Of a stretch of 64,000 bases of DNA, positions 4,990-18,151 are shown in pieces. The DNA lies in assembly GCA_001792895.1 (NCBI GenBank), contig MARA01000021.1:62001-126000 (forward strand), given 5' to 3'. The stretch's first letter is position 1. Each line of letters starts with the position of its first letter. The stretch comes from Lentinus brumalis (taxonomy: Eukaryota; Basidiomycota; Agaricomycetes; Polyporales; Polyporaceae). The notes under the pieces were generated by a model. It did not search any database and was not told the DNA's origin. It worked only from the letters and a program-made list of their open reading frames with translations. The position numbers were made by a program, and so were the translations under genes.

Positions 4990-6857
4990 ATGGCCGACAT
5001 CTCTGACTTATCCCGGTTGTGAGTGTCTTTCGGGAGTGTGCGCGGTTATACAGCTGACGATATGTCTAGATCCGTTGAGAACTACTGCATTGTGGCGTCT
5101 ACAGGTAACTATCACATCCTGCTACCCCAGTATGCTGCTTGGTTGTTCACCATCGAGCCCAGCGTTGCTATGGTTTGACTTCGCCCTCACCTTCACGACC
5201 GAGGTCCGGCGCATCTGGCGACGAAAATTCACTGGCGCCACCGTCGTCTACCTATTCACCCGCTACACCGCGCTTATTGAACGCGTCTTCTTCGTCCTGG
5301 AAGTTTTGCTCTGGAACTCCACAGATGAGGTGAGACCGTTACCAGCCAGCCGAAGACACAATATTGATGTTGTGTCCTAGACGTGTGGCCGCATCGACCG
5401 AGTCGACGATATTCTCACGATAATCAACTACTTCGCCTTCGCCTGTGAGTGTCCGCAGCCGTACTCCGCCATATACAGTCCAACTGACATGAACTCCAGC
5501 GTTCACAATTCTGCGAGTGTTCGGTGTCTGGGGACGAGATTGGAAACCTCTCCTCCTAGTGATTCCCCTGACCCTCGTGAGGCCTGCTCTCTATATTGTG
5601 AGTTTGCGCAGGACCACCGTGTTCTATAAGGCTGATCGGCAAAACACGAAGGTCGAGACCTCGAACTATGTTCCTATACAATATGGGCCTCCGTGGGGAT
5701 GTGCCGAAGTCTACGGCTATTCCAACGAGATGCTTGCAAAGTACGCATTTGCCTTCGTGTCGAAGATCTATGTATCCTGCAATTGCTGACCGATCACGTA
5801 TTGCAGATGTGCGTCGTTGTTCTATAGCCTTCAAGCCTACCTGTCGGAGTCGTCGCTGACTCCTCTCATGGGACTGCTTAGTTTCCACCATCGCCAAGGC
5901 AGCAAGTATTGCAGCAGACGCGATCCTCATCGCGCTAACCTGGGTGAAGACGTTCGGGATCAACAAGGACTCGTCAAGGCTTGGTGTCCGGACCCCTCTG
6001 GCTACGTTGCTTCTTCGTGATGGTAGGTGATTTTGACAACTCCATATCTAACGCTTCCTAACTCGACATCCGCAGGTACTGCGTACTTTCTGTATGTACT
6101 TGGCAAACAACCCGCGTGGAAGCACGACTGACCAATACCCCGTGTCGCAGTATCCTGCTAGTCATCCAAGTTGTCACCATCGTGACCAGTCAAGTCGGAT
6201 CCGTAAGTGATCTCCTCCGTCTGCATCCTACAGCAGTTGCTTACCGAAGCCCAGTCTCTCACCGTCTGGCTTGTATGGCCATACTTTGACCAGGTGTACG
6301 TCCGCAGCCTTTCTCAACTGCCTGTGCTTGGCACGAGCTCAACTTCGCTACCAGCTTCACTGTGATCTTCCTATCACGCTTCATGCTCGACCTGCGTGGC
6401 CTTTACTTCTCCGAGCACGTCAACGCCGATGGGAACGCGACAGACACGACCACCCGCTCCGGCCGCGTGCTCTCGGACATCCGGTTCACGACGTCGAACA
6501 TCGTCGGCAACCTCGGTGCGACGCTCAGCACGACCCTCACCTACTCCGACTTCTCGACGACGTCTTCCGTCTCGTCGCATCCAGAAGAAGACACGCATGC
6601 ATCAGAGAAGGCAGGCCTTGGGCTGCCAGAGTGGTACAAGGACGAGGTCCCGCGGTATGCGAGCCATCCGTTCGAGGAGGGCATGATGTTCCCTATCTGG
6701 GTGGACGTTCCGCGCGTGACGGACGTCGAGCTGGGGGAGGTTCAGTCACCCATAAGCCCGGTAAGTTCACCTTGTTCACGTCGATTATGGGTTGCGAGAG
6801 TTCACGATGGCCGTCTTTGTCATGCAGGATTCTCCGCAGAGCCCGTCGGCGGTATGA
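4990..6857 (+). CDS. DUF6533 seven-helix membrane protein, copy 1
   Basis: A 389-residue model from 13 exons: 4990-5018, 5070-5104, 5163-5329, 5381-5444, 5500-5597, 5652-5740, 5807-5808, 5882-6022, 6076-6091, 6151-6202, 6255-6295, 6355-6760, 6828-6857. All phases agree. The N-terminus carries the DUF6533 signature (ENYCIVAST, then ALLWFDFALTFTTEVRRIW). Several hydrophobic helices follow, then the family's 'PLATLLLRDG' motif, the last helix (FTVIFLSRFMLDLRGL) and a hydrophilic tail of about 150 residues. The family (Pfam DUF6533, PF20151) is very numerous in mushrooms, membrane-embedded and of unknown function. Exon 7 is only two nucleotides long; without it the frame breaks. This copy has an intron (5445-5499) that copies 2 and 3 lack. 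Confidence 0.85.
5807..5808 (+). other. 2-nt microexon (AT) in DUF6533 copy 1
   Basis: Sequence reads TTGCAG|AT|GTGCGT. The upstream intron is 5741-5806 (66 nt) and the downstream one 5809-5881 (73 nt). The exon before ends in phase 2 and the exon after needs phase 1, so two bases must remain between them. The same layout occurs at 14879-14880 and 17375-17376. Confidence 0.75.
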
Positions 6858-14152: not shown

Positions 14153-15679
14153 TCATTCCCCCTCGGTCAGTGTCTCCATTGTAGGCATATTCGGTGTGGG
14201 GTTTGACTCCAAGGTTGGTATGGGAGACAGTCCGCGAACGTCGAGGATAAAGTGGGACAGGATTATAACGTAGATGCTGGAAACACTCAACTCAGCAATC
14301 TCCAGAGACCCAATAATTCAGGCTTCGAGCGCACATTTCGTAAAAGTATGGCCATACGAGGAAGAGCGTGGTACTCTGCGGTCCAAAATGAGCACGCTGT
14401 GCAATGCCGGGAGGGACGCCAGCAATGGCAGACACTCACATTCTTCTACACGTCCTGTCAGCTCAAGTTCACAATCCAAACGGACATGAAACGTACAGGA
14501 TTTGCGTAGAAGTTTGCGAACGCGTTGAACACCAAGAGCCTATGTACTCGCAAATCAGACACCGCCTGGGCGCAGGGGCCGATGGGGATGATACGTACAC
14601 CAAGAACAGGATTCCTACGGGTGGAATGTTAGCGCAGTTCGTATAAGGCGGAGTCCACCTAAGCATTCCTAGGAGGCACTCACCGTCTCTGAGCAGCAGC
14701 GTCGCCAGCGGCGTGCGCATGCGGCTCCTCCACGCAAGTCTCTTGATCGAGAACGTCTTGACCATCGTAACGAAGACGAGGACGGCGTGAGATGCGACCA
14801 TCGTTGCAGACGCTATAGTAGTGTCTTTCCCTCAATCAGGACTTGCGAATACAATGAAGGAGGCTGAGAGGACCTCACATCTTGGAAAATGAGCGCATGG
14901 GGATTGACAACACTCAGCAAACCGCACCAATCATGACTTACCGTGCTAAAGAGGTTGCAGACAGCGTGTAGTCGTAAGTGCATCCATATGGAAATCCGCC
15001 CTGGACAGGGAAGTATCCTGCGCTTTCGATCTGCCCTTCGCGGTCACGACAAGACCACCACAAGAACATCCGGAAGTGAGCACTCACCGAGTACAAGATC
15101 GGGCGTACAAGGTTCAGGGGCAATACGAAGGGGATCCATCTCCAGTTCTTGGTGGAGATCCCGTATACACGAATGATGACAATGACGGCGGTCGCGAGGA
15201 GGTTCAGGATGTACAGAACGTCGTTGATATGGGTAAGAACACTACATGCCTGACGAACCACAGATCCATCAGTAGGCACGTATCGTAGAATAAATTATGC
15301 AATGCATGCGCACCACATCGTCTATGTTCCACAGCAGGACCTGCATTGTCAGAGTGGCCCTACCGAGGAGTATGCTGTATCGCATGCATAAGTATGCAAG
15401 CGAGACGCAAGAGAACTCGCGGTGCCATATGCGTTGGATCTCGGGGATGAGCGTCAAGCCGAAGTCGTACCACAGAAGTGCTGAGCGGACATACTTATGA
15501 GCTCCTCCGAGTCGTAGAGCGTCAATAACTGACAACGCACCGGAAGACGCCATGATGCAGTAGTTCTGTGTCATACTGCGGAGCATGTTAGTATCGCGAA
15601 CACGCCACGCCAGCCAACAGGTCACTCACACTCTGGAGGGGTTCTGTATGAGCGCGCTATGCTCGTACGAGTACGACAT
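14153..15679 (-). CDS. DUF6533 membrane protein, copy 2
   Basis: A 285-residue model from 11 exons: 15679-15630, 15575-15541, 15480-15314, 15249-15088, 15030-14942, 14880-14879, 14812-14684, 14614-14599, 14539-14497, 14375-14335, 14276-14153. Exon lengths 35, 167, 162 (64+98 in copy 1), 89, 2, 16 and 41 nt equal those of copy 1. It has the DUF6533 motif (ALLWYDFGLTLIPEIQRIW), 'PLATLLLRDG' and the final helix (YVIILSHFILDVRGL), then a tail of about 25 residues, much shorter than in copy 1. The 2-nt exon at 14879-14880 is required for frame. It is a multi-pass membrane protein of unknown role, and the tandem partner of copy 3. Confidence 0.85.
14879..14880 (-). other. 2-nt microexon (AT) in DUF6533 copy 2
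   Basis: Minus strand reads TCCAAG|AT|GTGAGG, with flanking introns of 61 nt (14881-14941) and 66 nt (14813-14878). It is needed to join CG (phase 2) to CGTCTGCAACG in frame. Confidence 0.75.
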
Positions 15680-16541: not shown

Positions 16542-18151
16542 TCAGCCCCCACCGTTCTCGCTTTCAAGTACGGCGACGAGGTCTTCTGGTAGTACATCCT
16601 GGGTGTCATCTGTCTCCACGACATACTCCGGGGTAAGGTTTGATCGTTCCCGCGTGACCGTCGCAGTGGGTGCGATCTTCGGCAGTTCGAACATGGGGAG
16701 GCTGATTGTCGCGTACGGTCCGATATCGTCCCCTTGCACGGCATGCAGTCCGCGGGCGTCGAGGATGAAATGGGAGAGGATGATGACGTAGATGCTACAA
16801 GCCCCGTTAGCTTTGCCGCCAGTCATCGGAGAGCTCGAAAGTATCGCGTACATCTCGTAGAAGTACGGCCATACGAGGAAAATCGTGGTACTCTGCTCCA
16901 TGATGAATGTGATGTCCACATTGAGAAATTCATGACCAGACACGCACGTCTGTCTGTGCAGGCTGTCAGACGTCGCCGTTCGAGCAGGCTGAGGACAAGC
17001 GTTGATACGTACGGGGGTCGCATAGAAGTTCGCGAACGCGTTGAATATCAGGATGCTGCTCTCCCAGTCAAGACACGTCTGCGCAGGCCCATGAACAACA
17101 CGCACACGAGGAACAGGATGCCTGGGAAACAGAGCTGCATCAGTGCACGATACATGGTCTACCAGGGATACCGATTTACGTACCATCTCTGAGCAGCAGC
17201 GCCGTCAACGGAGTGCGCATGCGGCTGTTCCAAGCATGTCTCTTGATAGATAATGTCTTGACCGCTGTGACAAGAACGAGGATACCATGCGATGCCAGCA
17301 TCGTCGCAGATGATATCGTCGTAACTGTCGACGTATGAGGCCGTGTCAGGGGCAAGCTGGAGGAAGGGACTTACACCTAGGAAGAGACATATCAGACTTG
17401 TCGATGCACATGCCAGAGATATTCACTCACAGTGCCAAGGACGTTTCCGACAGAGTGTAATTATAAGTACATCCAAAGGGGGACCTCCCTGTAGGGGTTG
17501 ATAGCGCGCACTCTCTAACTGCCGAGACAATGTCACCATGGGTGTTTATAGAATGACTCGGATCGCTGTGAGCACTCACCGCGTACAAGACCGGGCGGAC
17601 GAGGTTGAGGGGCAAGACGATGGGTAGCCACCTCCAGTTTTTGGCAGAGATCCCGTAGACACGGATAACGATGATTACAGCGGTTGCTAGAAGGTTGACG
17701 ATATAGGCGACATCGTTGAGATGAGTGAGAATGTTACACGTCTAGTCAGAATGGTTAGTAATACATGGCGCTGGCATACGGAGATGTTCGTACCTCGTCC
17801 TCTGCATTCCACATGAGTACTTCCAAGACTAGAGTGGTCCGGTCAATCAGGACGCTGTATCGCATACAGATGTACGCGACGGAGACACAAGAGAGCTCCC
17901 GATGCCATATGCGCTGGACTTCGGTGGTCAGAGTCAAGCCGAAGTCGTACCAGAGAAGTGCTGAAGCAGATCGGCTTCAGTTATCCGTGCATCACCGAGT
18001 CGAAGACGAATCACCGGAAGACGCCATGATGCAATAGTTCTGGACCATGCTGAAAATGGTCCTGAGTGAGGTATATACACCATTCAAGCATGAGCACTTA
18101 CACTCTAGAGGGATTCCGGATAAGCGCACTATGCCCGTACGAATACGACAT
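16542..18151 (-). CDS. DUF6533 membrane protein, copy 3 (one-base frame break)
   Basis: Eleven exons: 18151-18102, 18049-18015, 17960-17794, 17741-17580, 17518-17431, 17376-17375, 17324-17184, 17121-17106, 17055-17013, 16892-16852, 16794-16542. It would encode about 332 residues. DUF6533 motif: ALLWYDFGLTLTTEVQRIW. The last helix is YVIILSHFILDARGL, followed by an acidic tail of about 70 residues. Exon 5 is 88 nt instead of the 89 nt of copies 1 and 2: its start reads LESARYQPLQGG in one frame and its end FGCTYNYTLSETSLA in the next, with the change at a five-G run (17478-17482). Every other exon is intact, so an undercalled base is as likely as a real pseudogene. The 2-nt exon is 17376-17375. 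Confidence 0.75.
17375..17376 (-). other. 2-nt microexon (GT) in DUF6533 copy 3
   Basis: Minus strand reads TTCCTAG|GT|GTAAGT with introns of 54 nt (17377-17430) and 50 nt (17325-17374) on either side. Position and phase are as in copies 1 and 2. Confidence 0.7.

What the first reader, a model, noticed from the sequence alone, without database searches (positions are those of the whole stretch)
5741..5881. A conserved 2-nt microexon in the DUF6533 membrane-protein family
In all three complete DUF6533 genes the coding sequence stays open only if exactly two bases survive between two adjacent, normal-sized introns: AT at 5807-5808, AT at 14879-14880, GT at 17375-17376. Each pair is flanked by a proper acceptor (GCAG, CAAG, CTAG) and donor (GTGCGT, GTGAGG, GTAAGT), and each intron is 50-73 nt. 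Removing the whole block as one intron (141, 129 or 106 nt) would shift the frame in every copy. The upstream exon ends in phase 2 and the downstream exon needs phase 1 in all three. Copy 1 lies about 8 kb from the tandem pair and has diverged, so the feature is old. Exons this short are rare and need either recursive splicing or unusual exon definition.
Basis: partly seen in the sequence, partly recalled or inferred. Interest (0 to 1): 0.88.

Follow-up and report, generated by a model that had tools for sequence, protein, structure and literature searches.

The report
Two-base exon in mushroom receptor-like genes
A large family of receptor-like membrane-protein genes in a wood-decay mushroom appears to need an exon only two bases long, sitting between two ordinary introns in nearly every copy examined, which would explain why these genes are so often mis-annotated in databases.

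Summary
The three window copies have the stated anatomy: phase-2 donor, 54-66-nt intron, 2-nt exon (AT, AT, GT), second short intron, phase-1 acceptor. The genome has at least 150 DUF6533 matches; I could read 86 distinct paralogue junctions. An enumeration free to choose any middle exon of 0-30 nt puts 2 nt first in 69 of 86. With boundaries fixed (18 by hand), AG-NN-GT with 40 nt or more on both sides is in 83 of the 84 kept, shuffle mean 9.0; one of the 83 is doubtful, the 84th has 8 nt. A CTRAY branch site precedes the mid-block AG in 59 of 83, shuffle mean 10.0. Eight intronless database ORFs, probably cDNA, show the spacing the 2-nt model predicts. Of 195 scorable database homologues 142 break at this junction; 151 of 183 pass the next intron cleanly. 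Best reading: a constitutive, family-wide 2-nt microexon opening TM5 of a 7-TM, Ste2-like protein. Exons of 1-5 nt are known elsewhere; the scale is new. Not shown: RNA reads from this species, splicing order, DNA of other species.

The parts
5652..5740 (+). copy 1, coding exon before the block, ends in phase 2 (..NEMLA + AA)
   Evidence: spliced model
5741..5806 (+). copy 1, intron 1 (66 nt, GTACGC..GCAG, CTGAC branch site)
5807..5808 (+). copy 1, 2-nt microexon AT (third base of a Lys codon, first base of a Phe codon)
   Evidence: L. tigrinus protein P0002 reads NEMLAKFSTVAK
5809..5881 (+). copy 1, intron 2 (73 nt, GTGCGT..TTAG, CTGAC branch site)
5882..6022 (+). copy 1, coding exon after the block (TM5), begins in phase 1
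14942..15030 (-). copy 2, coding exon before the block
14881..14941 (-). copy 2, intron 1 (61 nt, GTAAGT..CAAG)
14879..14880 (-). copy 2, 2-nt microexon AT
14813..14878 (-). copy 2, intron 2 (66 nt to ATAG; or 14825-14878, 54 nt, to AAAG, which fits the paralogue protein length better)
14684..14824 (-). copy 2, coding exon after the block (starts 14824 or 14812)
17431..17518 (-). copy 3, coding exon before the block
17377..17430 (-). copy 3, intron 1 (54 nt, GTGAGT..CTAG)
17375..17376 (-). copy 3, 2-nt microexon GT
17325..17374 (-). copy 3, intron 2 (50 nt, GTAAGT..ACAG)
17184..17324 (-). copy 3, coding exon after the block (TM5)

Best explanation
A constitutive 2-nt exon, common to nearly all DUF6533 genes read in this genome, is retained between two normal U2-type introns. 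It supplies the third base of one codon (usually Arg or Lys) and the first base of the next (usually Leu or Phe) at the start of transmembrane helix 5 of a 7-TM protein, and so restores the frame between a phase-2 donor and a phase-1 acceptor. Shown from sequence: the anatomy, its recurrence, the frame need, branch sites in both introns. Inferred: that the spliceosome uses it, by intron definition with the two short introns taken out one after the other, since the two bases are too few for the factors at acceptor 1 and donor 2 to sit there together. In the expanded clade the second intron has the better sites, which would suit its removal first; in the other loci the two introns are about equal. 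Also inferred: that the pair of introns is as old as the family in polypores.
For: Unconditioned enumeration: best middle exon 2 nt in 69 of 86; by reading, a fitting 2-nt site is present in 13 of the other 17. Fixed blocks: 83 of 84 against 9.0 in shuffles. CTRAY 8-26 nt before the mid-block AG in 59 of 83 against 10.0. Residue 1 is R/K in 56 of 83 and residue 2 L/F in 70 of 83; introns 44-75 and 44-100 nt, medians 54 and 56. With the 2 nt, the conserved Cys falls exactly 13 residues before the junction residue in 71 of 83, and Cys-32 residues-Thr spans the junction in 66 of 83; 8 of the 10 jgi/lgn/ena proteins that could be measured (P0043, P0048, P0050, P0081, P0097, P0098, P0099, P0113; whole ORFs on contigs of 1.1-1.8 kb, so probably cDNA) also show 32. 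The L. tigrinus orthologue of copy 1 (P0002) has exactly the predicted NEMLAKFSTVAK. Of 195 scorable database homologues, 142 stop or gap at this junction, whereas 151 of 183 pass the next intron cleanly.
Against: No RNA reads from this species. 'Probably cDNA' for the short contigs is inferred from length and lack of introns. For 66 of the 84 fixed blocks the outer sites were taken from the best k=2 solution and for 18 by hand, so the 83 of 84 is conditioned; the unconditioned figure is 69 of 86. Some in-frame single GT-AG intron can be written in 57 of 82 loci, though only 4 of 82 score 4 or more. In the expanded clade (39 loci) donor 1 is weak and acceptor 1 is AAG in 34 of 39. L015 lacks a good 2-nt site, L019 has a broken upstream frame, L009 has 8 nt, and three distant fetched loci (L012, L045, L070) were not resolved. 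Only 3 of the 13 non-NCBI proteins are called ungapped by the junction profile; two of the eight above (P0081, P0098) are called 'stop' and three (P0043, P0048, P0050) are unscorable by it. P0199 shows 31 and P0076 shows 22.
Confidence: 0.92

Rival explanations
1. A single intron with other splice sites keeps the frame in each gene, and the AG-NN-GT is a coincidence.
For: An in-frame GT-AG pair can be found near the block in 57 of 82 loci with lenient limits; database gene models often use such solutions.
Against: Only 4 of 82 reach a site score of 4; the solutions fall at different places and add or remove residues, while the 2-nt model gives the same Cys spacing in 71 of 83. It explains neither the AG-NN-GT excess (83 against 9.0) nor the branch sites before the mid-block AG (59 against 10.0).
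Confidence: 0.04
2. A stwintron: an internal intron splits a splice site of an external one, and no bases between them are exonic.
For: Two adjacent short fungal introns taken out in sequence is the stwintron layout (listing and abstract starts).
Against: Both introns have complete donors and acceptors of their own, and removing everything shifts the frame in all 84 fixed blocks, which are phase 2 and phase 1. In [D1,2] stwintrons the donor itself is interrupted, which is not seen here.
Confidence: 0.02
3. The two bases are included in only part of the transcripts, so that skipping switches the protein off by a frameshift in TM5 (a regulated gate).
For: Skipping or retaining intron 1 (82 of 83) or intron 2 (75 of 83) would disrupt the frame; in the expanded clade donor 1 and acceptor 1 are weak.
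Against: No expression data. In the other 44 loci the sites of both introns are equally good (mean donor scores 2.9 and 2.7). Weak sites can also mean decay.
Confidence: 0.12

Closest known systems
1-nt exon of CYP621A in Fusarium (PMC12940212; part 1 of 3 of the text read)
   Same: Fungal, found because two exons would not join in phase, flanked by two short introns, AG-N-GT, missed by annotation
   Different: One nucleotide, orthologues of one P450 gene; confirmed there by RNA reads. Here two nucleotides, over 80 paralogues in one genome, no RNA reads seen
1-nt microexons of plant APC11 and VPS55 (PMC8831610, passages; PMC4674806, listing and abstract start)
   Same: Constitutive ultra-short exon, old, widely mis-annotated
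   Different: One or two genes per plant genome; plant introns
4-nt microexon of human MPC1 (PMC9929638, listing and abstract start only)
   Same: Constitutive microexon whose length is not a multiple of three
   Different: 4 nt, vertebrate; no paralogue family
Stwintrons of Ascomycota (listing and abstract starts)
   Same: Two adjacent fungal introns removed in consecutive reactions
   Different: There a splice site is interrupted and nothing between is exonic; here both introns are complete and two bases stay
P450 microexons of Phanerochaete chrysosporium (PMC1184071, passages)
   Same: Very small exons between 45-55-bp introns in a white-rot polypore
   Different: Shortest exon reported there is 6 bp

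Membership tests
ultra-short constitutive microexon | exon of 15 nt or less flanked by two complete introns | tested here: met
   both introns have their own GT and AG in 83 of 84 fixed blocks, medians 54 and 56 nt; branch-site excess for intron 1 59 against 10.0 and for intron 2 31 against 10.1
ultra-short constitutive microexon | needed for the reading frame | tested here: met
   phase 2 before and phase 1 after in all 84 fixed blocks
ultra-short constitutive microexon | included in mature mRNA | tested here: inconclusive
   no RNA data; 8 intronless database ORFs have the predicted spacing but are not from this species and their cDNA nature is inferred
stwintron | a donor, branch or acceptor element of one intron is interrupted by the other | tested here: not met
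   both introns are complete, and removing both with the two bases shifts frame
zero-nt recursive (ratchet-point) splicing | AG and GT juxtaposed with no bases retained | tested here: not met
   k=0 does not keep frame; its excess (40 of 84) follows from donors GTAGGT
DUF6533 (PF20151) | match to the Pfam profile over its cut-off | tested here: met
   whole-genome search with PF20151: window copies 1 (C51:67153-67278) and 3 (C51:79845-79970) over the cut-off; copy 2 is not among the 150 listed and rests on homology to copy 3; a 57-aa piece of copy 1 alone gave no Pfam hit
GPCR-like 7-TM receptor (class D, Ste2) | 7-TM fold matching Ste2 | tested here: inconclusive
   [not shown]

The most novel reading that the evidence does not exclude
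The 2-nt exon is a frame gate for a receptor repertoire: in the expanded clade (39 loci read) selection has weakened donor 1 and acceptor 1, so that inclusion is conditional (for example on the stage of fruiting-body development) and decides which of the many DUF6533 receptors are made in full. The same gate would exist throughout the family in Agaricomycetes.
Probability: 0.12. Interest if true: 0.88.

Novelty: new member of a known kind. Interest (0 to 1): 0.72.

Why it matters
If right, one genome holds over eighty natural versions of a 2-nt exon with different bases and splice-site strengths, which makes it possible to test how a spliceosome includes an exon too small for its own footprint, in which order the introns go, and what sets fidelity. 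It also means that many DUF6533 models in databases are wrong at the start of TM5: 142 of 195 scorable homologues here break at the junction. The family includes snb1, needed for mushroom fruiting-body patterning (PMC10949477, passages). Gene finders for fungi need a 2-nt exon option here.

Tried and rejected
Single-intron solutions were enumerated and rejected as the general account. Stwintron and zero-nt recursive splicing were considered and fail on completeness of both introns and on frame. A regular expression for TM5 found few loci and was replaced by iterated profiles. A first count of the control junction (133 of 185) was spoiled by a pattern that matched too early; the recount is 151 of 183, which also rests on a pattern rather than on the junction profile, so the comparison with 53 of 195 is not fully like for like. 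A Pfam scan of a 57-aa piece of copy 1 gave nothing. Distances to a stop after skipping were computed on unspliced DNA and are not used.

Rows dropped before counts: 86 distinct junctions (identical 90-nt stretches collapsed); L062 minus strand (cut by the locus edge) and L019 (upstream frame broken) left 84; L009 (8 nt) left 83. Of 239 database proteins, 44 were too weak to score, leaving 195; 12 of these had no exon-end motif, leaving 183 for the control.

Literature: eight searches. No paper in that library holds any of six phrases for a 2-nt exon, and none holds micro-exon with Polyporales. This does not cover subscription journals. PMC12940212 says that exons of 2-5 bp were found before in Arabidopsis, Drosophila and humans, so 2 nt as such is not new.

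Full report
The finding concerns three DUF6533 genes in a 64-kb window of a 53.4-Mb fungal genome in 136 contigs. Nearest annotated relatives of window copy 1 are Lentinus brumalis (94% identity), L. tigrinus and Polyporus arcularius, so the organism is a polypore close to these.

Observation. Each has a phase-2 donor, an intron of 54-66 nt, two bases (AT, AT, GT), a second intron (73, 66 or 54, and 50 nt) and a phase-1 acceptor. For copy 2 the second acceptor is ambiguous: AAAG at 14825 preserves the protein length of the other copies, ATAG at 14813 has the better acceptor base.

Recurrence. PF20151 gives 150 scored matches out of 226 candidates in the genome, a lower bound. I fetched the loci of part of them; 61 of the 150 stayed unread. 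A profile of the exon after the block, iterated over the six-frame ORFs, gave 86 distinct junctions at E 1e-7 or better. For each I enumerated every pair of canonical introns with a middle exon of 0-30 nt that keeps frame: 2 nt ranks first in 69 of 86; the other 17 are 5 nt (3 loci), 8 nt (2), single loci with 17, 0, 7, 14, 6, 30, 29 or 3 nt, one without a solution and three without an upstream profile match. Reading these 17 by eye, a fitting 2-nt site is present in 13; the exceptions are L009 (8 nt, exactly two codons more), L015 (no good site), L019 (upstream frame broken) and L062 minus strand (cut by the locus edge).

Control. With outer sites fixed (18 by hand, 66 from the best 2-nt solution) the interior was scanned for AG-N(k)-GT with at least 40 nt on each side. 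For k=2: 83 of 84 observed, 9.0 in shuffles; stricter, 81 against 1.8. k=0 and k=6 are enriched as a by-product of donors GTAGGT and GTNNGT and do not keep frame. A CTRAY branch site lies 8-26 nt before the mid-block AG in 59 of 83 (shuffle 10.0) and before the final AG in 31 of 83 (10.1). The mid-block AG therefore looks like a real acceptor.

What the two bases encode. NN is GC 40, AT 15, AC 9, GT 6, CT 4, GA 3, CC 2, and TG, AA, TT, GG once each; never AG. The codons read R or K in 56 of 83 and then L or F in 70 of 83. The 83 loci lie on 16 contigs and fall into 53 clusters at 70% and 15 at 40% ungapped identity, so the structure is not one recent duplication.

Length test. In the 2-nt spliced models the conserved extracellular Cys lies exactly 13 residues before the junction residue in 71 of 83, and Cys-32 residues-Thr spans the junction in 66 of 83. 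Of 13 database proteins from jgi, lgn or ena sources, ten could be measured: eight have spacing 32, P0199 has 31, P0076 has 22 and looks like unspliced genomic DNA (sequences). The eight are whole ORFs on contigs of 1.1-1.8 kb, where genes of this family have several introns, so I take them for cDNA; that is an inference. By the junction profile alone only P0097, P0099 and P0113 of the 13 count as ungapped.

Database annotations. The four best hits to copy 1 give four different solutions at the junction: P0001 lacks GYSNEMLAKF, P0002 has the exact predicted sequence, P0003 diverges after NEMLAK, P0004 has a replaced stretch. Over 239 homologues from three searches (the last lists 120 of 182), 195 are scorable: 53 pass without a gap, 28 have a gap, 114 stop at the junction. 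The junction profile was built from my own 2-nt models. At the next intron 151 of 183 pass cleanly. Thirteen of the 53 ungapped ones have Val as the second residue, never seen in the 83 loci here; I suspect that the models took the AG of the second acceptor for the two missing bases.

Mechanism. Introns of about 54 and 56 nt suit intron definition. I expect consecutive removal because two bases are fewer than the footprints at acceptor 1 and donor 2 (general knowledge, not tested). In the expanded clade (39 loci) donor 1 is weak (mean -2.9 on my scale), acceptor 1 is AAG in 34 of 39, while donor 2 (mean 2.9) and acceptor 2 (CAG in 37 of 39) are good; in the other 44 loci the donors are about equal (2.9 and 2.7). 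The next intron in the same expanded genes mostly has GTATGT (19 of 39), so the weakness belongs to intron 1.

Verdict. A real, old, family-wide 2-nt microexon is by far the best account (0.92). In kind it belongs with the 1-nt exons of plants and Fusarium; in number of genes within one genome it exceeds those in the papers I saw. RNA evidence from this species is the missing step.

Noticed in passing
[not shown]
   Followed up: partly
loci on C35 and C45 (L016-L043, L047-L054 and others): An expanded clade has weak donor 1 (GTTTGG, GTTCGG) and an AAG acceptor at intron 1 but strong sites at intron 2.
   Followed up: partly
83 loci, last base of the microexon: The base before donor 2 is G in only 2 of 83 (C 51, T 26, A 4) while before donor 1 it is G in 41 of 83; NN is never AG.
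   Followed up: no
window 14813-14825 (minus strand): Copy 2 has two in-frame acceptors 12 nt apart, so TM5 may start with or without four extra residues.
   Followed up: no
L009 (G000:C1:871913-875176): A divergent paralogue has an 8-nt exon ACTTGAAG at the same place: two codons more, same phases.
   Followed up: partly
L019 (G000:C35:323612-326878): The 2-nt site is present but the upstream exon frame is broken, perhaps a pseudogene.
   Followed up: no
database homologues P0009, P0013, P0032, P0127, P0131 and others: 13 of 53 ungapped database models carry Val at the second junction residue, as if two bases of the downstream acceptor AG had been taken for exon.
   Followed up: partly
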